From Roseimicrobium sp. ORNL1 (GTDB lineage: Bacteria; Verrucomicrobiota; Verrucomicrobiia; Verrucomicrobiales; Verrucomicrobiaceae): 64,000 bases of DNA. A program made the position numbers and the translations under genes. The notes beneath the pieces are model-generated. The model was not told the DNA's origin. It did not search any database and saw only the letters and a program-made list of their open reading frames with translations. The stretch covers positions 6,262,001 through 6,326,000 of the forward strand of contig NZ_CP049143.1 of NCBI RefSeq assembly GCF_011044495.1, given 5' to 3'. Shown one piece after another: positions 46,266-61,696 of the stretch (the stretch's first letter is position 1; each line of letters opens with the position of its first letter).

Positions 46266-46420
46266 TAGGGCTGCCTTGCCGCTCTATCGAAGAGCCCTCG
46301 GCAAATTTCGCAGGATAAATGCTGCCCCGATGTCCCGGGAGACGGCGTCCATTCGTCTTACCTGCGAATCCCCCTAGTGCTGCGTGGATTCAACCATCTC
46401 CAACCCACCTCCGCTTCGCC

Positions 46421-46894
46421 ATGGCCACCTTTGAAACCGAGCTCTCGCCCTCCCCCTCCTCGTCCAGCAGCAGTGCCGTGACGGAAATCCAAAGCCTGAT
46501 GGATGACTGGCGCAACGCGCTGACGGCAAAAGACCTGGATCGCCTGATCCAACACTACGATCCTGCCGTGCGCTTTTTTGACGCAGTACCGCCCTATGAA
46601 CACCAGGGCGCGACGGCCTACCGGCGCACCTGGGAGAACATGATGCCCTTCCTGCCTGAAGCCCTGGGCTCGGAAGTGCGGGAACTTCAAATCACGGCTG
46701 AAGGGAACGTCGCCTTCGCCTCATGCCTGCAGCGCCTGACGAATCGGAAAAACAATGAAGCTGCGACGTGTGGATGGGTGCGCGTGACCCTCTGCTTCCA
46801 GCGGAAGAATGACAGCTGGAAGGTGGTGCACGAACACGTGTCCGTGCCCTTCAACCCGCAAACGGCTCAGGCCGCCTTCGTAAAGGAGCTGTAG
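46421..46894 (+). CDS. SnoaL/DUF4440-like protein
   Basis: 157 residues from ATG 46421, after which a Ser-rich start (SPSPSSSSSSAVTE) leads to an NTF2-like domain: IQSLMDDWRNALTAKDLDRL, IQHYDPAVRFFDAVPPYEHQ, a central beta strand VAFASCLQRLTN, and the end VTLCFQRKNDSWKVVHEHVS. The family (SnoaL-like, YybH type) is a small cone-shaped fold that often binds hydrophobic ligands; specific functions vary. It converges on the AraC-type gene at 46910 with only 15 bases between the stops. Confidence 0.83.
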   Translation: MATFETELSPSPSSSSSSAVTEIQSLMDDWRNALTAKDLDRLIQHYDPAVRFFDAVPPYEHQGATAYRRTWENMMPFLPEALGSEVRELQITAEGNVAFASCLQRLTNRKNNEAATCGWVRVTLCFQRKNDSWKVVHEHVSVPFNPQTAQAAFVKEL

Positions 46895-46909
46895 AAAGCC
46901 GGAACTCGC

Positions 46910-47356
46910 TTAGCAGCAGAACTTGGCCGCCGCGTCGGACAGCGGCACGAAGAGTTCGTGGAGCCAGGCTGCCACCAGTCCGAGGACTCCACTGGAGTTG
47001 GAGTTCTCGCGGTTGGCCCGCATTTCCCGGCGATACAAGCTGGGGGTCTTGCCAATTTCACGGGTAAACCCGCGCACAAAGGCTCCCAAGCTCTGATATC
47101 CCACCGCAGACGAGATCTGGCCAATCATCATGTTCGACTTGAGCAGCATCGAGGCGGCACGCGCCATGCGCAGTCTGCGGATGTAACCCGGGATGGTCTC
47201 GCGATGATACCTCCGGAAAAGCCGGCTCAACTGGAATGGCGTCATGCTGACGTCAGAGGCCAGTGACTTCAGACTCGGCGGATTTTCAAGGCTGGACTCA
47301 ATGAGTTCAGCGACCCGTTGCGCTGGAGGGACGTGCGGCGGTTGCCGGTTGGACAT
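46910..47356 (-). CDS. AraC-family transcriptional regulator (short form)
   Basis: About 148 residues from the ATG at 47356. A complete AraC DNA-binding domain: LKSLASDVSMTPFQLSRLFR (first HTH), IPGYIRRLRMARAASMLL, then ISSAVGYQSLGAFVRGFTRE (second HTH), ending IGKTPSLYRREMR. There is no N-terminal effector domain, so ligand sensing must be elsewhere, or it works as a SoxS/MarA-like regulator. The tail LGLVAAWLHELFVPLSD is hydrophobic and unusual. It converges on the SnoaL-like gene. Confidence 0.88.
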   Translation of the reverse strand: MSNRQPPHVPPAQRVAELIESSLENPPSLKSLASDVSMTPFQLSRLFRRYHRETIPGYIRRLRMARAASMLLKSNMMIGQISSAVGYQSLGAFVRGFTREIGKTPSLYRREMRANRENSNSSGVLGLVAAWLHELFVPLSDAAAKFCC

Positions 47357-47407
47357 CCGGAAGCATGCGCCATTTGCCTTGCATGTCAATTTACTCGCAA
47401 TCACTCC

Positions 47408-47870: not shown

Positions 47871-48086
47871 ATGGGGCCTAAAAAGTCACTCATATTGAAG
47901 ACATACAGGGTCGTATTAAACTCTTTCTGCGTGGTGTTTGTGGATGCTGAGGGATACATCGAGACCGAGACCCTGATTGCCTTCAACCGGAGTGGGTCGG
48001 TTTCTGCAGAATATCCACGGGCCATGGTGAGGGAAGTAGTCGAGGTCTTGGAGCCGCAGATGCGTCGGCATGGCCCACTTTCCTAA
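47871..48086 (+). CDS. small hypothetical protein
   Basis: 71 residues from ATG 47871 (MGPKKSLILKTYRVVLNSFC). It alternates strands and a final helix (YPRAMVREVVEVLEPQMRRH). The frame opens further to 47769, but the extra residues overlap the divergent gene. The sequence around 47815-47950 is richer in A/T than the surrounding genes, which might reflect a recent arrival or simply a promoter region. No family recognised. Confidence 0.45.
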   Translation: MGPKKSLILKTYRVVLNSFCVVFVDAEGYIETETLIAFNRSGSVSAEYPRAMVREVVEVLEPQMRRHGPLS

Positions 48087-48233
48087 TCGCCTTTTACATC
48101 TCTGTATCAGCAGGTTGTCCGTCCAGTGAATGCCCAGGCACTCCCCCGAGTGGATTGAGGTTGGAAGAGTTTGAAGGAGCCATCTCTCGAAGGGGCATGG
48201 CCATGTGAGTTGACAACTCAGCGCGCCCATGTA

Positions 48234-48267
48234 ATTAACTCATCAGTTAATTAACTTATTGGTTAAT
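48234..48267. promoter_or_regulatory. tandem overlapping operators of the ArsR-type gene
   Basis: A perfect palindrome ATTAACT-CATC-AGTTAAT (48234-48251) overlaps by two bases a second one, ATTAACT-TATT-GGTTAAT (48250-48267, one mismatch). Both have 7-bp arms and a 4-base spacer and stop five bases before the arsR-type start codon, a good place for autorepression. Confidence 0.75.
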
Positions 48268-48271
48268 CTCG

Positions 48272-48718
48272 ATGTCCGACCGCCTCAGCAACACCTTTGC
48301 CGCTCTCGCTGACCCCACGCGCCGTGCCATCCTCGCTCGGCTGGCGTCCGGCGAAGCCTCGGTGAAGGAACTCGCCCAGCCGTTCGACATGACTCCCCCG
48401 GCCATCACCAAGCACCTCAAGGTGCTGGAGCGCAGCGGACTCATCGCCCGTTCCCGGGATGCTCAGAAACGCCCCTGCCGCCTGAAGGCCAAACCTCTCA
48501 AGGAGGCAGTCGACTGGCTGGAGCGCTACCGCGAGCTCTGGGAGGAGCGGCTCGACCGACTCGACGAGTACCTGCAGGAGCTGCAGGCCCAAACCCAGAG
48601 CCAGAGCCAGACCAAAGCTCACGAGCAATCCAGTTCCGACGCGCACGCTCAACCTTCATCCACCTCCAAGAAAAAGGAGGAGCCATCCCATGAATCAGGA
48701 AAAAAGCACCACCGCTGA
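48272..48718 (+). CDS. ArsR-family transcriptional regulator
   Basis: 148 residues. Winged helix: NTFAALADPTRRAILARLAS, then SVKELAQPFDMTPPAITKHL with recognition helix TPPAITKHLKVLERSGLI, and the wing ARSRDAQKRPCRLKAKPL. No metal-binding ELCVCDL-type Cys motif is present, so it is probably not a classical arsenic sensor; this subgroup usually accompanies AHSA1/SRPBCC genes and DoxX. A Gln/Ser/Lys-rich C-terminal tail of ~45 residues follows. The gene overlaps the next start by 29 bases, and its coding sequence contains that gene's ribosome site. Autoregulation via the tandem operators is likely. Confidence 0.93.
   Translation: MSDRLSNTFAALADPTRRAILARLASGEASVKELAQPFDMTPPAITKHLKVLERSGLIARSRDAQKRPCRLKAKPLKEAVDWLERYRELWEERLDRLDEYLQELQAQTQSQSQTKAHEQSSSDAHAQPSSTSKKKEEPSHESGKKHHR
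48674..48680 (+). promoter_or_regulatory. strong ribosome binding site inside the arsR-type gene
   Basis: AAGGAGG lies nine bases before the ATG at 48690, within the last codons of the preceding gene. It fixes the start of the SRPBCC gene and shows the overlap is genuine. Confidence 0.7.
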
Positions 48719-49223
48719 AGCCGCTGCCGCAGTGCAGCCATTCGTCATCACCCGCACCCTGAATGCTCCACGTGACCTTGTGTGGAAGGCGTGGACCGAG
48801 CCGGAGCGTCTCGCCCAGTGGTGGGGGCCCAAGGGATGCACCATCAAGGTGCACCAACTGGATCTGCGTCCCGGCGGTATCTTCCACTACACCATGAGTT
48901 TTCCTGGTGGTGGTGACGATATGTGGTGCCGCTTTGCCTTCCGGGAAGTCACCCCACCGCAAAGAATTGTCTGGGTGAATTCCTTTTCCGATGCGGAGGG
49001 CGGCATCACACGGCCTCCCTTTGATGATAACTGGCCCCTTGAGATCCTGAACGAAGTCACGCTCACCGAGGAGAACGGCAAGACGCAGCTCACGCTTCAC
49101 GCAACGCCGATCAACGCGACGGCCGAGGAAGTGCAGACCTTCGACACCAACCGCGCCTCACTCAATCAAGGCTACAGCGGCACCTGGGACCAGCTCGAGG
49201 AATACCTGGCGAGCATCGCCTGA
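48690..49223 (+). CDS. SRPBCC (AHSA1-type) protein 1
   Basis: 177 residues. The START/Bet v 1-like AHSA1 pattern: FVITRTLNAPRDLVWKAWTE, ERLAQWWGPKGCTIKVHQLD, LRPGGIFHYTMSFPGG, and late EVTLTEENGKTQLTLHATPI. Such domains form a deep cavity that binds hydrophobic small molecules; AHSA1-type members are often found with ArsR-type regulators and DoxX proteins in large soil-bacterial genomes. Ligand unknown. Cytosolic, no signal. It overlaps the regulator gene. Confidence 0.9.
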   Translation: MNQEKSTTAEAAAAVQPFVITRTLNAPRDLVWKAWTEPERLAQWWGPKGCTIKVHQLDLRPGGIFHYTMSFPGGGDDMWCRFAFREVTPPQRIVWVNSFSDAEGGITRPPFDDNWPLEILNEVTLTEENGKTQLTLHATPINATAEEVQTFDTNRASLNQGYSGTWDQLEEYLASIA

Positions 49224-49265
49224 GAAAAAAGCCCTTCACGCCTGACATCCACCGAACGCAACAAC

Positions 49266-50219
49266 ATGAGCCTCGCAAAATCATCCTCCACCGACGGCAG
49301 TGAATCCCTACCGTCACTTACCTTCACCCGCACCTTTGATGCACCACGCGCGCTCGTGTGGAAGGTATGGACTGACCCGGTGCATATGGCCGCCTGGTGG
49401 GGTCCCGATGACTTCACCAATCCGGTGTGTGACATGGACGTACGCCTGGGCGGCACTCTGAAAATCGACATGCGCAGCCCGGGCGGCACCGTGTATCCCA
49501 TGACCGGGGTGTTCAAGGAGATCACGGAGCCCGAGCGCCTGTCGTTCACCTGCACGCCGCTGGATGACAAGGGCGAAATCATCTTCGAAGAGCTGACCAC
49601 GGTGACCTTCACCGAGAACAGCGGCAAGACCACCCTGCACATTGAGGCACGCATCCTCTGGAAGAAACCCGAAGCGGACGCCTATCTCACCGGCATGGAG
49701 GAAGGCTGGCGCCAAAGCCTCGTGCGCCTGGGCTCGCAGGTCGCTCGCGCCAAGGTCTCCGTGCCGGCAGAGGCGAATCGAGAACTCATCAACACACGTT
49801 TCTTCAAGGCACCACGAGATTTGGTGTTCGAAGCATGGTCGAAGCCGGAGCATGTGGCGCGCTGGTATGGTCCCAATGGGTTCACGCTCACCACGCACCA
49901 GATGGACTTCCGCCCCGGCGGCATGTGGCAGTACATCATGCACGGACCGGATGGCACGGACTATGACAACCGCGTGGTGTATGAGGAAATATCACGCCCG
50001 GAGCGACTCGTGTACCTGCACGGACACGACAAGGACAATGATCCCGAGGCCTTCCACGTGACGGTGACCTTTGCTGAAGAGGACGGCGGCACCCGCCTCA
50101 CCATGCGCCTTGTCATGGCCACGGCAGAGCAGCGCGAGGCCAGTGTGAAGTTCGGCGCCGTCGAGGGTGGCAAACAGACCCTCTCGCGTCTGGACGCCTA
50201 CCTGGCCACACTGGGCTGA
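49266..50219 (+). CDS. double-domain SRPBCC (AHSA1-type) protein
   Basis: 317 residues made of two AHSA1 domains in tandem. Domain 1 (~15-155): FTRTFDAPRALVWKVWTDPV, MAAWWGPDDFTNPVCDMDVR and TFTENSGKTTLHIEARI. Domain 2 (~175-315): INTRFFKAPRDLVFEAWSKP, VARWYGPNGFTLTTHQMDFR, RPGGMWQYIMHGPDGTDYDN and VTFAEEDGGTRLTMRLVMAT. Both keep the RPGG / LGG turn and the WW/WYGP motif, so both are probably functional. It may have arisen by fusion of two genes like its neighbours. It lies 42 bases behind the first SRPBCC gene. Confidence 0.9.
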   Translation: MSLAKSSSTDGSESLPSLTFTRTFDAPRALVWKVWTDPVHMAAWWGPDDFTNPVCDMDVRLGGTLKIDMRSPGGTVYPMTGVFKEITEPERLSFTCTPLDDKGEIIFEELTTVTFTENSGKTTLHIEARILWKKPEADAYLTGMEEGWRQSLVRLGSQVARAKVSVPAEANRELINTRFFKAPRDLVFEAWSKPEHVARWYGPNGFTLTTHQMDFRPGGMWQYIMHGPDGTDYDNRVVYEEISRPERLVYLHGHDKDNDPEAFHVTVTFAEEDGGTRLTMRLVMATAEQREASVKFGAVEGGKQTLSRLDAYLATLG

Positions 50220-50383
50220 GGCATTGGATTTGCGTCATTATTCACGCCTCCCCGGAGGGGGGAGGCGCGAACGCAAGCAAAGAATTTTTGCTGCGAGTGT
50301 CCTTTCAGGCGGGCACCATTCGTCATGGAGGTGAAGACACACACCGAAACCACACCTCCACACGCAACTCTACTACTCGTCCT

Positions 50384-51016
50384 ATGATCAAGAAACTGCT
50401 CCTCATCCTGCTTTCCCTCTTCGCCATTGCGTTCTTGGGTCTCGGCATCCTTGTCGCTGTCGCTTCTACGAAAGCGGACGAATTCCAGATCAGCCGCTCC
50501 GCCACCATCGCCGCTCCTGCTCCGGTGGTCTTTGACCAGGTGAATACCCTCAAGAAATGGCAGGCGTGGTCCCCCTGGATCAAGCGTGACCCGGGCACGA
50601 AAGTAACCTATGCCGGTCCGGAATCCGGAACGGGGGCATCGTACTCCTGGGTGGGCGACAAGGAAACCAGCGAAGGCAAGCTCACCATCACGGACAGCCG
50701 TCCGAGTGAGAAGATGGAATGCACGCTGGTGTTTCTCAAACCTTTCGAGGCAACCAACACAGCCAGCTTCATCCTGGTCCCCGAGGACGGCAAAACCAAG
50801 GTCACCTGGATCATGGCCGGCAAAAATAACATCGTGGGCAAGGTGATGTGCCTGTTCATGGACATGGACAAGATGGTCGGCGGAGACTTCGAAGAAGGCC
50901 TCAGCTCCATCAAGGCCATTGCGGAGAAGGAAGCGGCATCTGCTCCTGCGGCAACGACTGCTCCGGCTCCTGAAAGTGCACCGGCACCGGCACCCAGCCC
51001 TGCCCCGAATTCATAA
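50384..51016 (+). CDS. membrane-anchored SRPBCC (polyketide-cyclase-like) protein
   Basis: About 210 residues from ATG 50384. An N-terminal span (KLLLILLSLFAIAFLGLGIL) precedes a SRPBCC domain (ISRSATIAAPAPVVFDQVNT, LKKWQAWSPWIKRDPGTKVT, GTGASYSWVGDKETSEGKLT) that lacks the WWGP motif of its neighbours and is closer to the polyketide cyclase/DUF group. The C-terminus is an Ala/Pro-rich tail (APAPESAPAPAPSPAPNS). So this member of the cluster faces the membrane or periplasm. 164 bases separate it from the double-domain gene. Confidence 0.85.
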   Translation: MIKKLLLILLSLFAIAFLGLGILVAVASTKADEFQISRSATIAAPAPVVFDQVNTLKKWQAWSPWIKRDPGTKVTYAGPESGTGASYSWVGDKETSEGKLTITDSRPSEKMECTLVFLKPFEATNTASFILVPEDGKTKVTWIMAGKNNIVGKVMCLFMDMDKMVGGDFEEGLSSIKAIAEKEAASAPAATTAPAPESAPAPAPSPAPNS

Positions 51017-51071
51017 CGTGCTTCAGCGTCCGTGAGAGCGGACTCCCCCAATCCCCCCGCCCCATCCAGCC

Positions 51072-51596
51072 ATGAGCAGCAAGCGAGCCTCCCTCAGTAC
51101 GGCACTGGCCATTCGCCCCGTCATTGTTTCCCGTGTGATCCCTGCATCCCCGGACATGGTGTTCGAGGCATGGACCCAACCGGAGCAACTCATGCACTGG
51201 TGGTCCGCGGGAGGCCTGTGCACGCCTGAGTGCGAAATCGACCTGCGCCCCGGCGGTGTTTTTTATTATTGCATGCGTTCACCGGATGGCACGGACTACC
51301 GGTGCAAAGGAATATATCAGGAAGTGTCCGAGCCCGAGCGCCTTGTCTTCACCAACACCTTTGTGAACGAAGCCCGCCAGCTTGCGCATCATCCCGACCT
51401 GCCGGACTGGCCGCGCGAGACCTTGGTGCATGTGACCTTTGCTCTGCATCAAGAAGGCACATGCATCACGCTGCAACAAGCCGTGTCCAAGGCGAATGAG
51501 GCCGAAGCGGAAGGCTTCGAACGTGGTCGTGAAGGCGCCCACGAGTTCTGGGCCATGACCCTGGACTGCCTCGCAGAGAACCTCGCGCACGCGTGA
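51072..51596 (+). CDS. SRPBCC (AHSA1-type) protein 4
   Basis: 174 residues: IVSRVIPASPDMVFEAWTQP, LMHWWSAGGLCTPECEIDLR, RPGGVFYYCMRSPDGTDYRC, and late strands ETLVHVTFALHQEGTCITLQ. It is a normal single-domain AHSA1-type member. The C-terminal helix (AEGFERGREGAHEFWAMTLD) closes the cavity. It is followed 64 bases later by a DoxX-like gene. Ligand unknown. Confidence 0.88.
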   Translation: MSSKRASLSTALAIRPVIVSRVIPASPDMVFEAWTQPEQLMHWWSAGGLCTPECEIDLRPGGVFYYCMRSPDGTDYRCKGIYQEVSEPERLVFTNTFVNEARQLAHHPDLPDWPRETLVHVTFALHQEGTCITLQQAVSKANEAEAEGFERGREGAHEFWAMTLDCLAENLAHA

Positions 51597-51660
51597 TCAT
51601 TTACCCACCCCATTCACTCCCACAACAAACACCCAGCCCAAGCCCAACAACTGCCACCCT

Positions 51661-52074
51661 ATGAACGCGCCTGATTCTGCCTCCCCCTCCACCCCGAAAG
51701 CCATGTACTGGATCGGATGGGTCCTCAGCGTCCTGCCCTGTCTGCTTCTCATCTTCAGTGCCTACATGAAACTCAATCCTACCCCGGAGGTCATCGAGGA
51801 GATGAACAAGAACGGCTTCCCCATGCAGCTTGCCATTCCCCTCGGCATCACGGAACTCGCCTGTACCGTGCTCTATCTGATTCCCCGCACCGCGGTGTTG
51901 GGAGCCATCCTGCTCGCAGCCTACCTTGGCGGCGCGGTTTCCTCGCACGTGCTGAAGCTACAAGGAATTTCCTTCTGGTTCATACCGGTGCTTCTCGGCG
52001 TGTTTCTGTGGCTCGGTCTCTGGCTGCGTGATGCCCGCCTGCGCGCGCTGCTGCCCTTCACGAGCAAGGCGTGA
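51661..52074 (+). CDS. DoxX-like membrane protein
   Basis: 137 residues with four hydrophobic segments (MYWIGWVLSVLPCLLLIFSA, MQLAIPLGITELACTVLYLI, AVLGAILLAAYLGGAVSSHV, FIPVLLGVFLWLGLWL). It matches the DoxX-like (DUF) group usually found in ArsR/AHSA1 loci. The start of the next gene follows 41 bases later. Function in this context is unknown; possibly redox or membrane stress-related. Confidence 0.88.
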   Translation: MNAPDSASPSTPKAMYWIGWVLSVLPCLLLIFSAYMKLNPTPEVIEEMNKNGFPMQLAIPLGITELACTVLYLIPRTAVLGAILLAAYLGGAVSSHVLKLQGISFWFIPVLLGVFLWLGLWLRDARLRALLPFTSKA

Positions 52075-52115
52075 TGGTGCGTGCGCCATCCCAATACATC
52101 CCACCCCATCACACC

Positions 52116-52616
52116 ATGGCTGCGAAATTCCAAAAGTTCACCACGCACCTCTGCTACAACAATCAGGCAGAGGAAGCCGTGGCGCTCTACACCTCGCTCT
52201 TTGAAAACTCGGGGATCAAGCATGTGCTCCACTATGGGAAAGACCAGCACGGTCCGGAAGGCAGCGTGCTGGGAATCCTCTTCGAGCTGTGTGGCGTGGA
52301 TTTCTGGGCCGTGAATGGTGGCCCGTATTTCAAGTTCGAGCAGGGCATGTCCATCTACGTAAAATGCGAGACACAGGAGGAGATTGACAAGCTCTGGGAG
52401 AAGCTCGCGGAGGGCGGCAAGCACCAGCAGTGCGGGTGGCTCGTGGACAAGTTCGGCGTGTCCTGGCAGATCGCCCCGGCCATTGTCGATGACATGATGC
52501 GCGACCCGGATCCCGAGAAGGCCCAGCGCATCCTGACAGCCGTCTTGGAAATGGAGAAGTACGACATCGAAGAACTGAAGCGCGTCTATGAAGGCCGCCC
52601 TACCATCCCCGCCTGA
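52116..52616 (+). CDS. PhnB-like VOC-family protein
   Basis: 166 residues from ATG 52116. KFQKFTTHLCYNNQAEEAVA, LYTSLFENSGIKHVLHYG, ILFELCGVDFWAVNGGPYFK and CGWLVDKFGVSWQIAPAIVD are the features of the PhnB / 3-demethylubiquinone-9 3-methyltransferase-like VOC group. These proteins have paired beta-alpha-beta motifs and often bind a metal or act as small-molecule sequestering proteins. Catalysis is not proven for most members. The gene overlaps the next start by 29 bases. Confidence 0.9.
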   Translation: MAAKFQKFTTHLCYNNQAEEAVALYTSLFENSGIKHVLHYGKDQHGPEGSVLGILFELCGVDFWAVNGGPYFKFEQGMSIYVKCETQEEIDKLWEKLAEGGKHQQCGWLVDKFGVSWQIAPAIVDDMMRDPDPEKAQRILTAVLEMEKYDIEELKRVYEGRPTIPA

Positions 52617-53829
52617 GCTGCGGACAAGAAGGGATTCGGCTCCCTTTACCAAAGCCGGCCTCGACCGCCTGCGAGCATCAATGCAGTCGCATGTGGACAG
52701 CGGTCGACTGCCCGGTCTCGTCACTGCAATCAGCAGCCATGGCGAGCTGCACGTGGACGTCTACGGCATCCAAGACATGGCAGGCACGCGGCCTATGAAG
52801 CGGGACACGATTTTCCGCATCGCGTCTCTCACCAAGCCCATCGCCGCCACCGCGGCGATGTTGCTGGTGGAAGATGGCGAACTGGAACTCGATGACCCCG
52901 TGGATCCCTGGCTACCTGAGCTGACGAACCGCCGTGTACTGAGCTGGCTGGATGGTGCACTCGACGATACCGTTCCCGCCAAACGCGCCATCACGCTGCG
53001 TGACTTGCTCACCTTGCGCATGGGCTTGGGCCATCTCATGGATGCCTGCGAGGAATGCCCCATCCTCAAGGTGCTGAATGAGCAGCGGCTCCTCATGGGT
53101 TTCCCCGAACCTCAACTCGTGCCCGCGCCGGACGAATGGATGCGGCGGCTGGGCGAAGTACCGCTGATGCGCCATCCCGGTGAAGCGTGGATGTACGACC
53201 TTGCCTTCGACGTGCTGGGCGTCCTGATCGCCCGTGTCTCCGGCATGGGGTTCGAGGCTTTCCTTCGCGAGCGCATCTTCGAGCCGCTCGGCATGAAGGA
53301 CACTTCCTTCCATGTGCCCCCGGAAAAACTTCATCGCCTGCCCCCTGCCTATGCCGGTGATGAAGAAACTGGCGGGCTGTGTGTCTTCGATGCTGCCGAG
53401 GGTGGCCACTGGAGCACAGCGCCTGCGTTCCAGTCAGGCCGTGGTGGCTTGGTCTCGACGGCAGATGACTACCACGCCTTCTGCCAAATGCTGCTGCATC
53501 GCGGCACCTATACAGGCGGCCGGCTTCTCACGCCAAAGTCCGTGGCCCTGATGACCAGCGACCAACTCACACCACGTCAGCGCGAGGGAAACGAAATGTT
53601 TTTCGGCGACCACAGCAGTTGGGGTCTCGGCATGGGAGTTGTCATCAAGCAAACACCGGAGTCCAAGAGCGTGGGACGCTTCGGCTGGGATGGTGGCCTC
53701 GGCACTTCCGCCTACAACGATCCCTCACACGATCTCATCGGCATCCTCCTCACCCAGCGACTCATGGATTCTCCTGAACCGCCGGCGGTGTTCCGGGATT
53801 TTTGGGACGGGGTGTATGAAGCGATGTGA
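52588..53829 (+). CDS. serine hydrolase / beta-lactamase-like esterase
   Basis: 413 residues. SxxK nucleophile motif in FRIASLTKPIAATAAML (S80, K83). The second motif is the Tyr of WMYDLAFDVLGVLIA (Y203). The domain frame ends with GFGWDGGLGTSAYNDPSHD, the usual GG-x-S/T region. This is the class C beta-lactamase/esterase EstB fold. No signal peptide, so probably a cytosolic esterase or amidase rather than a penicillinase. It overlaps the VOC gene by 29 bases and closes the ArsR-led cluster. Confidence 0.9.
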   Translation: MKAALPSPPELRTRRDSAPFTKAGLDRLRASMQSHVDSGRLPGLVTAISSHGELHVDVYGIQDMAGTRPMKRDTIFRIASLTKPIAATAAMLLVEDGELELDDPVDPWLPELTNRRVLSWLDGALDDTVPAKRAITLRDLLTLRMGLGHLMDACEECPILKVLNEQRLLMGFPEPQLVPAPDEWMRRLGEVPLMRHPGEAWMYDLAFDVLGVLIARVSGMGFEAFLRERIFEPLGMKDTSFHVPPEKLHRLPPAYAGDEETGGLCVFDAAEGGHWSTAPAFQSGRGGLVSTADDYHAFCQMLLHRGTYTGGRLLTPKSVALMTSDQLTPRQREGNEMFFGDHSSWGLGMGVVIKQTPESKSVGRFGWDGGLGTSAYNDPSHDLIGILLTQRLMDSPEPPAVFRDFWDGVYEAM

Positions 53830-54557
53830 GGTGCAGGCTCCGTAAAAGCCGTCTGCCTCCGTGTGCAGCATCCTGCTCTGCGCTTCTTGAGAAGGGTGAC
53901 ACACGCTACAGATCTAGATACTGTGACGCGCAGCGTCCTTGGACTGCGCGCAGCCCTGCTGCCGCTTTCTAGAGTCCATCCCGCTTCGCGGGACTGTGGC
54001 GATGGCGACACTCGCTCGCAAGGTGACGCATCCAACACAGCTTGGCGACTTCGTCGCGGAGCAGCGTGCAGCAGGCTGCACTTTAGCAAAGCGGCAGCAG
54101 GGCTGCGCGCAATCCAAGGCCTTCGGCACCATTTCTAGATCACTCCCCTTACGTTCATGTGCCCTGCGGATCTCCGCAGCCATTCAGAGGCACCACCCAT
54201 CTTACGCGGCTCAGCATTAAGATCCGCACCTACAAAATAAAGGTGCGGCGGCTTCCGTAGCGGACTTGAAGGAGTAGGGGACAAGTCCTTGAGCACCTTG
54301 ATACCATATCGACGTCACTGATGAGACGTTTGGAGTGCTTTTCCCATCCACCCCCCGTGCACCATCTACCCCAGCGGCATGGACTATCTGAGCAGGGTTG
54401 TTCGAATGGTGAACCTGGGGGCGTTCTTGGCTGACTGGACTTGCTGGAAAGACGTGTCCTCCTCTGCCGTTACCCCCCTTGGTGACGGAGTGGTGCATGT
54501 CCGCCGGCTGTCCGTCCCTGTCTTTTCTTTTCCTCGTCCCCCGACACTACCCTCGTC
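53830..54557. other. gene-free interval with repeat copy B
   Basis: About 730 bases. Contains the palindromic element at 53923-54122 (listed separately) and a hairpin with 8-bp arms at 54224-54231/54241-54248 without T-run. A 7-bp stem GGACTTG / CAAGTCC lies near 54264-54290. Otherwise nothing recognisable; the promoter of the 54570 gene must lie in its last 150 bases. Confidence 0.55.
53923..54122 (+). repeat. palindromic dispersed element, copy B
   Basis: Outer arms 53936-53967 and 54089-54122 are inverted repeats (CCTTGGACTGCGCGCAGCCC... paired with ...GGGCTGCGCGCAATCCAAGG). The left arm continues outward as GTGACGCGCAGCGTCCTTGG from 53923, matching the outer right end of copy C. Interior landmarks: TGGCGATGGCGACACTCGCT and AGCTTGGCGACTTCGTCGCG, shared with copy C in the same order. 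Confidence 0.88.
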
Positions 54558-54569
54558 ATGCGCTCACCC

Positions 54570-57500
54570 ATGTCGATCCGCAACGCACCCATCTTTTCAC
54601 GCACCGCCTTGATCCTGCTGGCAGGCTCCGCCATCGCAGGCAGCTGCGCTACTCTCTCAGCCAAGCCCAAGGAGGAAGAGGTGTTCGACCCGAACAAGCC
54701 GGTCAGCTACTACAAGCAGATCCGGCCCATCTTCCAGGGCCAGTGCAACGGCTGTCACCAGCCCGCCAAGGCGAAGGGCGACTACATCATGACCGAGTTC
54801 CAGCGCCTGCTGAAGGGTGGCGAGAACAGCCCGGCCATCACCCCAGGCAAGGCGGAGGAGAGCTATCTCATCAAGCTCATCACCCCCGATGCCAAGGGCA
54901 AGGCGGAGATGCCTCAAAAAGCTGACCCTCTGCACGAAACGCAGATCGCGCTCATCAAGCGTTGGGTTGTCGAAGGTGCCAAGGACGACACGCCTGCCTC
55001 CGCCCGGCAGGAGTACGACATGGAGCATCCGCCCATCTACACCCGTCCGCCGCTCGTCACCTCCCTCGACTATTCGCCGGATGGCAAGCTCATCGCTGTG
55101 GCTGGGTATCATGAAGTGCTGCTGCACAACGCAGACGGCAGCGGCATCGCGGGCCGCCTCGTAGGTCTCTCCGAGCGCGTGCAGAGCGCCCGATTCTCTC
55201 CCGATGGCACGAAGCTCGCCGTCGCCGGCGGCAGCCCGGGTCGCATGGGTGAAATCCAGGTCTGGGATGTGGCGAAGAAGAAGCTCGAAATGAGCGTGAG
55301 CATCACCTTCGACACGCTCTACGGCGCGAACTGGAGCCCGGATGGCAAGCTCATCTCCTTCGGCGGCGCGGACAATTCGCTGCGCGTCATCGAGGCCGCC
55401 ACCGGCAAGCAGGTGGCCTTCAGCGGTTCAGCCAATGACTGGGTGCTCGACACCACCTGGGACAAGGACGGCAAGCACGTCATCGGCGCGAGCCGCGACA
55501 TGAGCGCCAAGCTCACCGAGGTGGAGACCCAGCGCTTCGTGGACAACATCACGAGCATCACCCCCGGCGCGCTCAAGGGCGGCATGCACACGGTGACCCG
55601 GCATCCGCAGAAGAACGAGATTCTCGTGGGCGGCGCCGACGGCGTGCCGCAGATCTATCGCATCTTCCGCGAGACCGTGCGCCGCATTGGTGACAACGCG
55701 AATCTCATCCGCAAGTTCCCTGCGATGGAAGGCCGCATCTTTGCCGGTGACTACTCGCCCGATGGCAAGGTCATCGCCACCGCGAGCGCCTATCATGGCA
55801 AGGGTGGTGTGAACTTCTACAGCGCCGAGTTCGATTCCACCATCCCTGCAGACCTGAAGAAGATCCTGGAGCAGGTCGGCAGCGCGAAGAACCCCGAAGT
55901 GGAGAAGTGGGTGACCAAGGATGTGAAGCTCATCCGCAGCATCCCCTTTGAGAAAGGTGGCGTGTATGCCCTGAGCTACAGCCCGGATGGCAAGACGGTG
56001 GCCGTGGCTGGTGACGAAGGTGTGGTGCGTCTCATCGATGCCGCCACCGGCAACATCGCCAAGGAATTCGTGAGCGTGCCCCTCGCCGATGCCGCCACCC
56101 TCGCCAGCCGCGCGCCGGACACACATGACGCCATCGCTCGCAGCAATGTGGAGAAGGCTCTTGCGAAGGAAGAACTCGCGCCGGGAGCGAAGATTGCCTC
56201 CATTGAAGTGACGCCCCGCCAGATCAAGCTGGCCAAGCCCACGGAGTATTCTCAGATCCTCGTCTCCGCCAAGCTGGCCGATGGCACCTATGCCGACGTG
56301 ACCCGCATGGTGAAGTTCACCCAGCAGGGCATCAAGACAGAAATCTCCTCACGTGGCCTCGTGCGTCCCAAGGAAGATGGCAAAGGCTCGCTGGCCATCG
56401 CCATTGGTTCCCACCAGGCGGAAGTGCCGGTGGAAATCACGGGAATGAACACCGCCTTTAACCCCGACTATGTGCGCGATGTGATGCCGGTGCTTTCCAA
56501 GGCCGGTTGCAATATGGGCACCTGCCACGGCTCGAAGGAGGGCAAGAATGGCTTCCAGCTCTCCCTGCGTGGTTATGACCCGGTGTATGACGTGACCGCC
56601 TTCACCGAGGAACTCTGGGGCCGTCGCGCGAATGTCGCCGCTCCCACTCACAGCCTAATGCTGCTGAAGGCCAGTGGCTCCGTGCCGCATGAAGGCGGCC
56701 AGGTGACTGTGCCCGGCGAGCTGTACTATGAAACCATCAAGGCGTGGATCCAGAATGGCACCACCTTCAATGAAGCTTCGCCTCGCGTGACCCGCATCGA
56801 GGTCTTCCCGAAGAATCCGGTGCTCGAGAACATCGGTTCCAAGCAGCAGATGCGCGTGATGGCCACCTATGCGGATGGCGTGACCAAGGACGTGACTGCG
56901 GAGGCGTTCATCGAATCCGGCAACACGGAAGTCGCCGAAGCGGACAAGCACGGCCTGATAACCACCGTTCGTCGTGGTGAAGCGCCCATGCTCGCGCGCT
57001 TTGAAGGTTCCTATGCCGCCACCACCATCACGGTGATGGGTGACCGCAACGGCTTCGCCTGGGTGGAGCCTCCGAAATTCAACAAGATCGACGAGTTCGT
57101 TTCCGTGAAGTGGAAGCGCATGAAGATCCAGCCCTCGGATGTGTGCTCGGATACGGAGTTCGTCCGCCGCGTGTATCTCGACCTCACGGGCTTGCCTCCT
57201 TCCTCGGAGGATGTGCGCGCCTTCCTCGCGGATCCCGCGGAACAAAAGGTGAAGCGTGAGATGCTGGTGGACAAGCTCATTGCCAGCCCGGCCTTCGTGG
57301 ACCAGTGGAGCAACAAGTGGGCGGACATGCTGCAGGTGAACAGCAAGTTCCTCGGTGACGAGGGCGCGAAGCTCTTCCGCGAGTGGATTCGCACGCAGAT
57401 CGCGGAGAACACGCCTTACGACAAGTTCGTGTATTCGATCCTGACGGCGAAGGGCTCCACCAAGGATAACCCCGCGGCGAACTACTACAAGATCCTGCGC

Positions 57501-59717
57501 ACGCCGGAGGAGACGATGGAGAACACCACGCACCTCTTCCTGGCCACGCGCTTCAACTGCAACAAGTGTCACGACCATCCCTTCGAGCGCTGGAACCAGA
57601 ACCAGTACTATGAGACCTCCGCGTTCTTCTCGCAGGTGGGACTCGCCAATGACCCGCAGAGCGGTGGCAAGACCATCGGTGGCACCGCTGTGGAGGGCGC
57701 GAAGCCGCTCTATGAAATCGTGAGCGACACAGGCAAGGGTGAAGTGACTCACCTGCGCACCAACAAGGAGACGCCTCCGCAATTCCCCTACCCTGCCAAG
57801 TTTGAGACGAAGCCAGATGCGCCCCGCCGTGAGAAGCTGGCTGCCTGGATGACCAGCGCAGACAACCAGTACTTTGCCATGAGCTATGCGAACCGCCTTT
57901 GGGGCTACCTCACCGGCACCGGTGTGATTGAGCCGCTGGATGACATCCGCGCCGGCAATCCGCCGAGCAATCCGGAACTGCTCACCTACCTCACCCAGGA
58001 GTTCGTGAACAGCGGCTTCAATGCGCGCCACCTCATGCAGCTCATCTGCAAGTCCCGCACCTACCAGCTCAGCGTGGCCGGCAACAAGTGGAACTACGAT
58101 GACAAGATCAACTACAGCCACGCCAAGGCCCGCCGCCTGAGCGCGGAAGCGTTGTACGACAGCATCTACGCAGTCACCGGCGCGGTGAGCAAGATCCCTG
58201 GCGTTTCGCCCGGCACCCGTGCGGCGCAGCTCGCAGATTCGCAGACAAAGCTCAGCGATGGTTTCCTGAACAACTTCGGCCGCCCTGCCCGTGAGAGCGC
58301 GTGCGAGTGCGAGCGCAGCAATGACGTGCAGCTTGGTCCCGTGATGGCTCTCATCAGCGGTCCCACTGTGGGTGATGCCATCAGCGACCCGAGCAACGCG
58401 ATTGCGAAGATGACCAAGGAGATCACGGATGACCGCAAACTCGTCTCGGAAATCTTCCTGCGCGTGCTCAACCGCCTGCCGAGTGACAAGGAGATCGATA
58501 CCGCGCTGGAAAGCATGGCCGGCATGGATGCCGAGCACAAGACGCTGACCGCCGAGTGGGCCGCGAGCGAAGTGAAGAACGCTCCGGTGATTGCCAAGGC
58601 GGAACAAGATCGCGCTGGCAAGATCACCGTCTCCCAGAAGGAACTGGATGACTACAAGGTGAAGGTCGCTCCGGAAAACAAGAAGAAGGAAGACGCCCGT
58701 GTCGCCGCCATCAAGAAAGCGGAAGACGGCGTCGCCGCTGCTGGAAAGACATTGCCGGATCAGCAGGTGCGCTGGGAGCCCTATGTGGATGTGAGCACCG
58801 AGTGGATCCCGCTCGAGCTCGAAGTCGTACGCATGGATGGCGTGCAGAAGCTGGACAAGCAGCAGGATGGTTCCCTGCTCGCCACGGGTTTCCCCGAAGG
58901 TCAGCAACGCAATGGCAACTACCAGGTGCGCGCCAAGACCAATCTCACGGGCATCACCGCCTTCAAGCTGGAACTGCTGCCGCATGACAGCCTGCCGAAC
59001 AACGGCCCCGGCCTCGCACCCGATGGCAACTTCGTGCTGAGCGAATTCACCGTGCAGCAGACCGCCATCGACAAGAAGCGCCCAAAGCGCCGTGAAGGTG
59101 CCCTGACGTTGATGAACCCGAAGGCAGACTTTGTGCAGAAGGACTTCGCGCCGGACCTCATCCTGAAGACCGGCAATCGCGACAAGGGCTGGGCCGTTTC
59201 TCCGGACACGGGCTATCGCCACGAACTCACGATGCAGCTCAAGGAACCCGCCGGACTCGAAGACGGGGCGATGTTCACCTTCAACCTGGTGCAGAACTTC
59301 CAGAACAGCGGCAAGTACCTCATCGGTCGTTTCCGCATCCTGGCGACCACCAGCAAGACGGTGCGCTTCGGCGCTTCGCAACCGGTGATCGCAGCGCTCA
59401 ATACCGCCGCGGACAAACGCACCAAGGAACAAAAGGACCTGCTGGCTGCCGAGTTTGCCAACCAGACCCGGCCTTATCAAGACACCAAGAAGTCGCTGGC
59501 CCAAGCCAAAAGGCCACTGCCCATCGACCAGAACCTCGTGGATCTGGAGAAGAAGCTCGCCGACGCACAGCTGCCCATTGAGCTCGACCAGAAGCTGGTG
59601 CAACTCCGCCGTGACTCCGATCTCAGCAAGAGCCAGATGGCCAACCGTCGCCTCACCGCGGCACAGGACCTTACTTGGGCGCTCATCAATTCGCCTGCGT
59701 TCTTGTTCAATTACTAG
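54570..59717 (+). CDS. giant PSCyt1-WD40-DUF1549-DUF1553 exported protein
   Basis: 1715 residues from ATG 54570 (ATG 54558 adds four). Order: signal peptide (FSRTALILLAGSAIAGS); PSCyt1-type cytochrome (CNGCHQP near residue 60); a WD40-like beta propeller, ~160-510, with repeated SPDGK strands; a Big_2-like domain (~540-630); a second haem-type motif region (CNMGTCHGS near 648); another Ig-like domain (~755-840); DUF1549 (~850-1060) with CNKCHDHPFERWNQNQYY near 1000; and DUF1553 (from ~1085, AMSYANRLWGYLTGTGV). Between the DUF1553 body and its end (RLTAAQDLTWALINSPAFLF) are ~330 residues with a coiled-coil and a discoidin-like beta domain. Secreted PVC-type protein, partner of the DUF1501 gene 45 bases downstream. 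Function unproven. Confidence 0.93.
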   Translation: MSIRNAPIFSRTALILLAGSAIAGSCATLSAKPKEEEVFDPNKPVSYYKQIRPIFQGQCNGCHQPAKAKGDYIMTEFQRLLKGGENSPAITPGKAEESYLIKLITPDAKGKAEMPQKADPLHETQIALIKRWVVEGAKDDTPASARQEYDMEHPPIYTRPPLVTSLDYSPDGKLIAVAGYHEVLLHNADGSGIAGRLVGLSERVQSARFSPDGTKLAVAGGSPGRMGEIQVWDVAKKKLEMSVSITFDTLYGANWSPDGKLISFGGADNSLRVIEAATGKQVAFSGSANDWVLDTTWDKDGKHVIGASRDMSAKLTEVETQRFVDNITSITPGALKGGMHTVTRHPQKNEILVGGADGVPQIYRIFRETVRRIGDNANLIRKFPAMEGRIFAGDYSPDGKVIATASAYHGKGGVNFYSAEFDSTIPADLKKILEQVGSAKNPEVEKWVTKDVKLIRSIPFEKGGVYALSYSPDGKTVAVAGDEGVVRLIDAATGNIAKEFVSVPLADAATLASRAPDTHDAIARSNVEKALAKEELAPGAKIASIEVTPRQIKLAKPTEYSQILVSAKLADGTYADVTRMVKFTQQGIKTEISSRGLVRPKEDGKGSLAIAIGSHQAEVPVEITGMNTAFNPDYVRDVMPVLSKAGCNMGTCHGSKEGKNGFQLSLRGYDPVYDVTAFTEELWGRRANVAAPTHSLMLLKASGSVPHEGGQVTVPGELYYETIKAWIQNGTTFNEASPRVTRIEVFPKNPVLENIGSKQQMRVMATYADGVTKDVTAEAFIESGNTEVAEADKHGLITTVRRGEAPMLARFEGSYAATTITVMGDRNGFAWVEPPKFNKIDEFVSVKWKRMKIQPSDVCSDTEFVRRVYLDLTGLPPSSEDVRAFLADPAEQKVKREMLVDKLIASPAFVDQWSNKWADMLQVNSKFLGDEGAKLFREWIRTQIAENTPYDKFVYSILTAKGSTKDNPAANYYKILRTPEETMENTTHLFLATRFNCNKCHDHPFERWNQNQYYETSAFFSQVGLANDPQSGGKTIGGTAVEGAKPLYEIVSDTGKGEVTHLRTNKETPPQFPYPAKFETKPDAPRREKLAAWMTSADNQYFAMSYANRLWGYLTGTGVIEPLDDIRAGNPPSNPELLTYLTQEFVNSGFNARHLMQLICKSRTYQLSVAGNKWNYDDKINYSHAKARRLSAEALYDSIYAVTGAVSKIPGVSPGTRAAQLADSQTKLSDGFLNNFGRPARESACECERSNDVQLGPVMALISGPTVGDAISDPSNAIAKMTKEITDDRKLVSEIFLRVLNRLPSDKEIDTALESMAGMDAEHKTLTAEWAASEVKNAPVIAKAEQDRAGKITVSQKELDDYKVKVAPENKKKEDARVAAIKKAEDGVAAAGKTLPDQQVRWEPYVDVSTEWIPLELEVVRMDGVQKLDKQQDGSLLATGFPEGQQRNGNYQVRAKTNLTGITAFKLELLPHDSLPNNGPGLAPDGNFVLSEFTVQQTAIDKKRPKRREGALTLMNPKADFVQKDFAPDLILKTGNRDKGWAVSPDTGYRHELTMQLKEPAGLEDGAMFTFNLVQNFQNSGKYLIGRFRILATTSKTVRFGASQPVIAALNTAADKRTKEQKDLLAAEFANQTRPYQDTKKSLAQAKRPLPIDQNLVDLEKKLADAQLPIELDQKLVQLRRDSDLSKSQMANRRLTAAQDLTWALINSPAFLFNY

Positions 59718-61232: not shown

Positions 61233-61281
61233 GCTGCATTGCATTTTCCTGACATCACGACCTCCCCATGGGAAAACTTGT

Positions 61282-61484
61282 GTGGCGAAGCCACCTTGGA
61301 CTGCGTGCAGCCCTGCTGCCGCTTTCCAGAGTCCACAGCCTGCTGTGGCGATGGTGACACTCGCTCGCAGGGCCACGTTTCCCAAAAAAGCTTGGCGACT
61401 TCGTCGCGGTGGAGTGTGCAGCAGGGCTGCACTTCAGGAAAGCGGCAGCAGGGCTGCGCGCAGTCCAAGGACGCTTCGCGTCAC
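61282..61484 (+). repeat. palindromic dispersed element, copy C
   Basis: Left arm from 61294 (CCTTGGACTGCGTGCAGCCC) and right arm 61438-61472 (GAAAGCGGCAGCAGGGCTGC...) are inverted repeats. Outer flanks (TGTGGCGAAGCCACC / ACGCTTCGCGTCAC) also partly pair. The interior shares TGGCGATGGTGACACTCGCT and AGCTTGGCGACTTCGTCGCG with copy B. It has the same orientation as copy B and the opposite of copy A. Confidence 0.88.
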
Positions 61485-61696
61485 AACGTCCAAATCAGTC
61501 GCGTCTATCGCTCCATTTCCTCATCCCGACGCACATGCGCAACGCGGGACGCTGTGTATTGATACGCAGCGCTTCTCTCGCTGAGGGCACTACAGAACAA
61601 AGAGGCTCGGAAATTCGAGTGCTGGAGCCTTCTTCAGCACTCAAAATCGATGGCTGTGATATGCATCACGACATGCGAAATCACGACTCACTCCAA

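What the first reader, a model, noticed from the sequence alone, without database searches (positions are those of the whole stretch)
48234..53829. ArsR-led cluster with four SRPBCC proteins, DoxX, VOC and serine hydrolase under tandem operators
The regulator lacks the Cys-rich metal site of classic ArsR proteins. Its two overlapping ATTAACT-N4-AGTTAAT operators sit at the start codon. Downstream are single, double and membrane-anchored SRPBCC proteins, a DoxX-like protein, a PhnB-like VOC and a serine hydrolase; overlaps (29 bases at 48690 and 52588) show an operon. Expansion of hydrophobic-ligand-binding SRPBCC domains under one sensor suggests a small-molecule stress or detoxification system whose ligand is unknown.
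Basis: partly seen in the sequence, partly recalled or inferred. Interest (0 to 1): 0.6.

Follow-up and report, generated by a model that had tools for sequence, protein, structure and literature searches.

The report
ArsR-repressed SRPBCC (AHSA1) gene operon
This is an eight-gene bacterial operon led by an ArsR-type self-repressor without the usual metal site and rich in pocket proteins of the SRPBCC fold; the core gene pair has been known since 2009, and what is worth following is its paired operator, which keeps the same 16-base spacing in distantly related bacteria.

Summary
Eight same-strand genes (48272-53829) encode an ArsR-type regulator, four SRPBCC proteins (five domains), DoxX_2, a PhnB-like VOC and a beta-lactamase-fold hydrolase. 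Two palindromes, one exact and one with one mismatch, overlap by 2 bp just before the start codon. In the 8-Mb genome the core motif occurs at three places: these two and the promoter region of a paralogous ArsR-AHSA1 pair. A same-genus genome keeps all eight genes in order under purifying selection. The module is known: Makarova et al. 2009 described ArsR-COG3832 pairs whose ArsR lacks metal motifs, and M. tuberculosis Rv2034-Rv2035 is a footprinted, metal-insensitive example. A toxin-antitoxin role was tested in Stenotrophomonas and failed. What I add: of 80 related loci, 54 carry two operator sites (0.5 expected), 50 of these at exactly 16 bp offset, in nine labelled phyla; in 67 of 77 readable loci an SRPBCC gene follows the regulator, 26 with two or more domains. 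Best reading: a local autorepressor of an SRPBCC-centred small-molecule stress operon. Ligand and detoxification role remain unproven.

The parts
48210..48215 (+). TTGACA, candidate -35 hexamer
   Evidence: read; kept in the same-genus genome G001; a TTGACA match of 5 of 6 or better lies upstream of the operator in 70 of 80 related loci, 11.1 in mononucleotide shuffles, 23 for the reversed hexamer
48232..48237 (+). TAATTA, candidate -10 (16-nt spacer, TG before it), overlapping operator 1
   Evidence: read; inference from spacing; the sigma-70 scan with its strict rule did not list it
48234..48251 (.). operator 1, ATTAACT-N4-AGTTAAT, exact
   Evidence: genome-wide
48250..48267 (.). operator 2, ATTAACT-N4-GGTTAAT, one mismatch, offset 16 bp
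   Evidence: 16-bp offset in 50 of 54 two-site loci
48272..48718 (+). ArsR-type regulator, 148 aa, one Cys
   Evidence: HTH_20 53.9 bits, HTH_5 44.9 bits
48690..49223 (+). AHSA1/SRPBCC protein, 177 aa
   Evidence: 89.9 bits
49266..50219 (+). two-domain AHSA1/SRPBCC protein, 317 aa
   Evidence: 216.1 bits, two stretches; model mean pLDDT 88.4; PDB neighbours
50220..50383 (+). intergenic gap, strongly folding and unusually conserved with G001
   Evidence: z -4.37, folded as 50215-50386; 78% identity over 50220-50386 against 43-64% for the four other intergenic gaps; 2 of 59 family genomes
50384..51016 (+). N-terminal hydrophobic anchor plus Polyketide_cyc2 SRPBCC domain, 210 aa
   Evidence: 43.6 bits; scanned from codon 2 on; start codon and length; anchor read by eye, no prediction run
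51072..51596 (+). AHSA1/SRPBCC protein, 174 aa
   Evidence: 93.2 bits
51661..52074 (+). DoxX_2 membrane protein, 137 aa
   Evidence: 64.5 bits
52116..52616 (+). PhnB-like VOC protein, 166 aa
   Evidence: PF06983, 139.2 bits
52588..53829 (+). beta-lactamase-fold serine hydrolase with SLTK (SxxK) motif, no evident signal peptide (both by eye), 413 aa
   Evidence: 223.9 bits; methyl acetate hydrolase AcmB 144.3 bits, below its 550-bit cut-off

Best explanation
The locus is an expanded member of the known ArsR-COG3832 (AHSA1) module. Shown by sequence: the regulator lacks the usual metal-site residues, a pair of palindromes offset by 16 bp lies just before its gene, these are nearly its only good sites in the genome, and eight genes follow in a same-strand order that a second species keeps. 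Inferred: two ArsR dimers sit on the two overlapping dyads, about one and a half helical turns apart and so on opposite faces of the DNA, block RNA polymerase at the -10 region and repress the whole operon including the regulator. Inferred and less certain: a hydrophobic or electrophilic small molecule relieves repression; the SRPBCC proteins (two single-domain, one two-domain, one membrane-anchored) bind or shuttle it, and the VOC, DoxX and serine-hydrolase proteins modify it or protect the membrane.
For: Operator present far above chance; core motif TTAACY-N4-RGTTAA at only 3 places in 7.96 Mb, all at ArsR-AHSA1 promoter regions, reversed control 0 (for the paralogue). Tandem site in 54 of 80 loci, 0.5 expected, 50 of 54 at offset 16; after thinning to 70% identity, 15 of 23 have two sites, all 15 at 16. 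TTGACA-like hexamer upstream in 70 of 80 (controls). SRPBCC gene downstream of the regulator in 67 of 77 readable loci, in 63 starting within 250 nt. Gene order kept in G001, dN/dS 0.08-0.28 for the eight genes. The operator and promoter are kept in G001 although the 172-bp upstream region as a whole is 46% identical. Published prototype Rv2034: footprinted 8-N4-8 palindrome next to its start, autorepression, no response to seven metals, overlapping downstream gene with a polyketide_cyc2 domain (PMC3338718 passages).
Against: No binding, transcript or ligand data exist for this organism in anything I saw. The 164-nt gap before gene 4 could hold a terminator or second promoter. The full eight-gene order was seen in two genomes of one genus only; DoxX and the anchored SRPBCC protein evolve fastest (dN/dS 0.28 and 0.26). 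Of the 12 loci labelled Verrucomicrobiota, 10 lack the tandem form by the thresholds used. 26 of 80 loci do not pass the two-site test and 10 of 77 had no SRPBCC in the chain. NCBIfam's generic model that matches the regulator is named metalloregulator (NF033788, 82.2 bits, cut-off 55), and its C-terminal tail has five His, so metal binding is not formally excluded. Rv2034 is reported to act on phoP and dosR too, so the prototype is not purely local. The site-scoring letters were chosen after reading the same upstream regions; the 16-bp offset was not built in.
Confidence: 0.75

Rival explanations
1. A toxin-antitoxin pair: AHSA1 is the toxin, ArsR the antitoxin and autoregulator, as proposed from gene-pair statistics.
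For: Makarova et al. 2009 listed COG3832-ArsR as a candidate pair with an uneven distribution; the pair is listed among modules induced in M. tuberculosis persister cells, untested.
Against: The same authors thought a role in antibiotic resistance the most plausible; the Stenotrophomonas COG3832 protein was not toxic in E. coli or in its own host; here one regulator faces four SRPBCC proteins plus enzymes, which does not look like a two-part addiction pair.
Confidence: 0.05
2. A sensor relay: an SRPBCC protein, not the ArsR protein, binds the ligand and then acts on the repressor.
For: No sensor site is visible in the ArsR core; the SRPBCC gene is the near-constant partner.
Against: No protein-protein interaction evidence; ArsR proteins can bind small molecules without a recognisable motif (general knowledge). 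Cys69, kept in 59 of 80 loci and in the two closest of 24 relatives, could still serve as a sensor.
Confidence: 0.15
3. A constitutive autorepressor with no ligand that only sets expression level; the downstream genes are a loose metabolic cluster.
For: Metals did not release Rv2034; the downstream genes beyond AHSA1 vary from genome to genome.
Against: Recurrent SRPBCC, VOC, YCII, DoxX and RibD_C neighbours argue for a shared chemical task, though each of the last four was found in a handful of loci only.
Confidence: 0.2
4. Two transcription units: genes 1-3 under the ArsR operator, genes 4-8 under a separate signal in the 164-nt gap.
For: The gap folds strongly (z -4.37) and is more conserved between the two species than the four other intergenic gaps (78% against 43-64%).
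Against: The consensus scans list no promoter and no intrinsic terminator there; no copy of the operator core there.
Confidence: 0.2

Closest known systems
ArsR-COG3832 (Aha1) two-gene module (Makarova, Wolf, Koonin 2009, PMC2701414; section 21 read; passages)
   Same: ArsR subfamily without metal motifs next to an AHSA1 gene; several copies per genome (five ArsR-AHSA1 pairs here by coordinates)
   Different: here one regulator heads four SRPBCC proteins plus DoxX, VOC and hydrolase; the paper speaks of a two-gene combination, and the section read does not mention an operator
Rv2034-Rv2035-Rv2036 of M. tuberculosis (PMC3338718; passages read)
   Same: autorepressing ArsR, metal-insensitive, overlapping downstream gene with polyketide_cyc2 domain, palindrome with a 4-bp spacer next to the start codon
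   Different: one palindrome, CCGTAAGT-N4-ACTTACGG, instead of two overlapping ATTAACT-type sites; Rv2034 also acts on phoP and dosR; sequence relationship of the two regulators not tested here
Di-domain aromatase/cyclases StfQ and BexL; enediyne-cluster SRPBCC proteins DynU16 and CalU16
   Same: SRPBCC fold; StfQ, BexL and DynU16 rank 1, 2 and 6 for the two-domain model, CalU16 rank 37
   Different: single AHSA1 structures (such as 1xuv_A, 34% identity) match one domain better; TM-scores of the StfQ, BexL and DynU16 hits are only 0.35-0.39 at rmsd 14.4-15.5, so the domain arrangement differs or is not modelled; of the eight genes here none was recognised as an antibiotic-synthesis gene

Membership tests
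ArsR/SmtB winged-helix family | HTH_5/HTH_20 domain over the curated score | tested here: met
   HTH_5 44.9 bits (cut-off 22), HTH_20 53.9 (27); NF033788 82.2 (55)
Metal-sensing ArsR/SmtB proteins | CxC in alpha-3 or His/Asp site in alpha-5 (motifs recalled) | tested here: not met
   one Cys (C69), one His (H48) outside the C-terminal tail, which has five His. C69 is kept in 59 of 80 loci, a set partly found with a peptide that contains it, and in the two closest of 24 relatives and paralogues. The generic NCBIfam model that it passes bears the name metalloregulator
ArsR-COG3832 module | ArsR without metal motif next to an AHSA1 gene | tested here: met
   29-bp overlap
Toxin-antitoxin system | growth inhibition by the partner, rescued by the regulator | not testable with these tools
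   published test of the Stenotrophomonas pair was negative
SdpR autorepressor family (NF033789) | score over the curated 100 bits | tested here: not met
   63.2 bits
Rv2034-type autorepressor | inverted repeat with 4-bp spacer next to own start codon | tested here: met
   geometry only
Rv2034-type autorepressor | orthology of the regulator to Rv2034 | not tested
   no Rv2034 sequence reached; the one attempt failed on its arguments
Anti-phage defence systems (PADLOC) | match to a defence-system protein beyond the shared HTH | tested here: not met
   11 Csa3/CasR/CARF models match the ArsR over its HTH region; 0 matches for the other seven proteins

The most novel reading that the evidence does not exclude
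A clade of ArsR repressors that spans many phyla uses a fixed double operator (two dyads 16 bp apart, opposite helical faces) on a TTGACA promoter to hold down SRPBCC genes, and the SRPBCC product itself is the ligand receptor that relays the signal to the repressor; the present operon is an expanded version with cytosolic and membrane-anchored receptors.
Probability: 0.12. Interest if true: 0.6.

Novelty: new member of a known kind. Interest (0 to 1): 0.3.

Why it matters
ArsR-AHSA1 modules are widespread and often carried in several copies per genome (five pairs here), yet in the passages that I read neither an inducer nor the job of the AHSA1 partner was established. The rigid 16-bp tandem operator gives a marker for the clade and a simple reporter for screening inducers, and the multi-SRPBCC operons (26 of 77 readable loci with two or more domains) point to which neighbours may share the chemistry.

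Tried and rejected
Toxin-antitoxin reading: set aside on the published negative test and on the gene content. Defence system: PADLOC matched only the HTH region of the regulator. Known structured RNA in the operon: no Rfam match up to E = 1 over 47900-54560; the gap 50220-50383 remains unexplained. Redox sensing by Cys69: kept only in the two closest of 24 relatives, so it is not a feature of the wider family; within the close clade it is not excluded, the more so as the only Cys of Rv2034 was needed for DNA binding. Horizontal transfer of the module: in the 105-row tree 49 of 100 inner branches are unresolved and the phylum labels are clustered (18 changes against 44.5 shuffled), so transfer is neither shown nor needed. 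Tandem operator as an independent marker in the phylum: the strict pattern hit 3 of 387 genomes; apart from the window's own site the other two fetched loci gave no tblastn match to the regulator up to E = 1 and look like chance. A first neighbourhood count (44 of 80) was replaced because it dropped domains whose match begins inside the ArsR overlap; the corrected count is 67 of 77, with 3 loci (L075, L100, L111) set aside as cut off by contig ends. It may still undercount: L131 and L144 show an AHSA1 open frame overlapping the ArsR end but count as empty. The chain caller (AHSA1 within the first two genes in 56 of the 72 loci of the 80 that it could parse) is coarse and was not used for the count. 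Of 108 unassigned neighbour proteins at positions 1-3, 48 were scanned against Pfam as alignment A1. Bias: the 80 loci were found with six peptides of the query, so identities at those peptides are inflated, and they are the best 80 of 171 relatives; phylum labels come from record titles, many of them metagenome bins.
Full report
Observation. The window lies in a 7.96-Mb single-contig genome. Between 48272 and 53829 there are eight same-strand open frames. Pfam names them ArsR-type HTH, AHSA1, AHSA1 twice in one protein, Polyketide_cyc2, AHSA1, DoxX_2, 3-dmu-9_3-mt (PhnB-like VOC) and Beta-lactamase, each over the curated cut-off. So there are four SRPBCC proteins with five domains. The third SRPBCC protein (ATG 50384; its scans began at codon 2) starts with a hydrophobic stretch that reads as a membrane anchor (by eye; no prediction run). 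Overlaps of 29 bases at 48690 and 52588 are exact. Gaps between the other genes are 42, 164, 55, 64 and 41 bases.

Operators. ATTAACT-N4-AGTTAAT is exact at 48234-48251 and has one mismatch at 48250-48267; 0.04 matches with up to two mismatches are expected in a window of this composition. In the genome the degenerate 18-mer gives only these two sites without mismatch, and two further places at one mismatch; the reversed control gives one place. The 16-base core TTAACY-N4-RGTTAA occurs at three places: these two and one upstream of the paralogous ArsR-AHSA1 pair at 2.949 Mb; the reversed control has none (paralogue). The regulator therefore looks local, with possible cross-talk to that one paralogue.

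Promoter. TTGACA (48210-48215), a 16-nt spacer and TAATTA (48232-48237, preceded by TG) precede the gene; the -10 overlaps operator 1. The built-in sigma-70 scan did not list this pair, so it is a reading, not a tool hit. In the same-genus genome G001 the TTGACA, the stretch CGCGCCC-R-TGTAATTAAC and both palindromes at the same spacing are kept (its second palindrome weaker), although the upstream region as a whole is only 46% identical.

Related loci. A scan of a collection of 84,980 species genomes with six short peptides of the regulator found 171 relatives, of which the best 80 were kept, with twelve phylum labels among them. I scored 120 bases upstream plus 15 downstream of each aligned start for two sites. 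The scoring letters were chosen after reading these regions; the offset was left free between 6 and 24. 54 of 80 have two sites (best at least 11 of 14, partner at least 10) against 0.5 per 80 in dinucleotide shuffles, and 50 of the 54 are offset by exactly 16 bp; the other four by 12 (three) or 17 (one). By label the 16-bp form is seen in Pseudomonadota 25 of 32, Cyanobacteriota 7 of 7, Acidobacteriota 6 of 7, Actinomycetota 4 of 5, Armatimonadota 2 of 2, Verrucomicrobiota 2 of 12, Gemmatimonadota 1 of 2, Chloroflexota 1 of 4 and Myxococcota 1 of 3, plus one locus without a phylum label; in none of 3 Planctomycetota, 1 Bacteroidota and 1 Fibrobacterota. Thinning the regulators at 70% identity leaves 23, of which 15 have two sites, all at 16. 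A TTGACA-like hexamer (5 of 6 or better) lies upstream of the operator in 70 of 80, against 11.1 in mononucleotide shuffles and 23 for the reversed hexamer. Among the more distant relatives of the same order, read by eye, several show one palindrome with the same core (L026, L036, L037, L038), some a variant with TTCAACC arms (L034, L053), and others none that I could see (for example L027, L028, L029).

Neighbours. In 67 of 77 readable loci an SRPBCC domain follows the regulator within 700 nt, in 63 within 250 nt; 41 have one domain, 26 have two to six (3 of the 80 loci were cut by contig ends). DoxX occurs in 5, VOC in 5 and the anchored-type SRPBCC in 3 of 77 chains. Of 48 other neighbour proteins scanned, YCII, RibD_C, DoxX_2 and DUF899 each match 4 and Glyoxalase 3. 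Chains with two or more SRPBCC domains and DoxX occur in L080, L090, L098, L101 and L113; L101 and L113 also carry the anchored-type SRPBCC gene.

Same genus. G001 has all eight genes in the same order. dN/dS is 0.079 (ArsR), 0.079, 0.096, 0.259 (anchored SRPBCC), 0.100, 0.283 (DoxX), 0.089 and 0.103 (hydrolase). All eight are thus under purifying selection. The gap between genes 3 and 4 is 78% identical while the four other intergenic gaps are 43-64%, and it folds better than all 200 shuffles; I cannot say why.

The regulator. It has one Cys, in the wing region. That Cys is found in 59 of 80 loci (partly a result of how they were found) and in 2 of 24 relatives and paralogues, the two closest ones. 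There is no CxC, and the core has a single His; five more His lie in a low-complexity C-terminal tail that is shorter in G001 (the whole protein has 127 against 148 residues). By sequence it is not a classic metal sensor, although the generic NCBIfam model that it passes is named metalloregulator.

The two-domain SRPBCC protein. AlphaFold2 with 15 sequences gives mean pLDDT 88.4 but pTM 0.52, so the domains are well modelled and their arrangement is not. Foldseek's best PDB hits are the di-domain aromatase/cyclases StfQ and BexL, with DynU16 at rank 6, at TM-scores of 0.35-0.39; single AHSA1 structures fit at target TM-scores up to 0.87 among the 50 listed. This says fold, not ligand.

Literature. 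Makarova et al. 2009 (PMC2701414; section 21 read, and passages) described ArsR-COG3832 as a stable, unevenly distributed pair not then seen on plasmids or phages, noted that the metal motifs are missing, thought antibiotic resistance the most plausible role and kept toxin-antitoxin open. PMC7650669 (passages) found the Stenotrophomonas pair non-toxic. PMC3968373 (passages) lists Rv2035-Rv2034 as such a pair, untested. PMC3338718 (passages) shows that Rv2034 is an autorepressor that binds CCGTAAGT-N4-ACTTACGG near its start and is not released by seven metals, that its single Cys is needed for binding, and that it also acts on phoP and dosR; its gene overlaps Rv2035. PMC2577659 (passages) notes ArsR proteins among those with AHA1-related domains. 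PMC9425974, PMC12604733 and PMC8151990 (passages) added nothing on what the AHSA1 partner does. Ten full-text searches brought up no paper that I recognised as describing this operon; none was aimed at the 16-bp tandem operator itself, so I do not claim that it is unpublished.

Mechanism. Shown: anatomy, conservation, rarity of the sites. Inferred: occupation of two dyads 1.5 helical turns apart by two dimers, occlusion of the -10 region, repression of the whole operon. Speculative: the ligand class and the roles of the VOC, DoxX and hydrolase proteins.

Verdict. A real, well-conserved regulatory unit of a known kind, in an expanded form. Interest 0.3, mostly for the conserved tandem operator.

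Noticed in passing
window 53937-54119 (also 61278-61486): Inverted-repeat element (arms 32 bp here, 53 bp at the second place) right after the operon; a 28-base piece of the arm matches 102 places (52 forward, 50 reverse, up to 2 mismatches) in the genome, often as facing pairs about 139 bp apart: a REP/MITE-like family.
   Followed up: partly
window 50220-50383: Intergenic gap inside the operon that folds strongly (z -4.37) and is 78% identical to G001 while the four other intergenic gaps are 43-64%; found in 2 of 59 family genomes; no Rfam match.
   Followed up: partly
G000:C1:2949272-2949287 (L158): The only other copy of the core operator in the genome lies upstream of a paralogous ArsR-AHSA1 pair: possible cross-regulation.
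   Followed up: partly
L117 and other Sphingomonas loci: In L117 the ArsR-AHSA1 pair sits just upstream of genes for ribosomal protein L25 and peptidyl-tRNA hydrolase; neighbours of nearly the same lengths (204-205 and 189-190 aa) follow in L119, L124, L128, L135, L137, L145 and L149.
   Followed up: no
L130 and L132 (Nitratireductor): Two ArsR-AHSA1 pairs about 6 kb apart with a serine-hydrolase-like gene between them.
   Followed up: no
L106 (bin labelled Flavobacteriales): Largest chain seen: six SRPBCC domains after the regulator, with a further AHSA1 and an anchored-type SRPBCC gene downstream.
   Followed up: no
window 46319-47404: SnoaL_3-like protein and an AraC-type regulator upstream of the operon, tail to tail on opposite strands.
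   Followed up: no
window 54558-59717: 1719-aa protein with planctomycete cytochrome C, WD40, DUF1549 and DUF1553 domains follows the operon.
   Followed up: no
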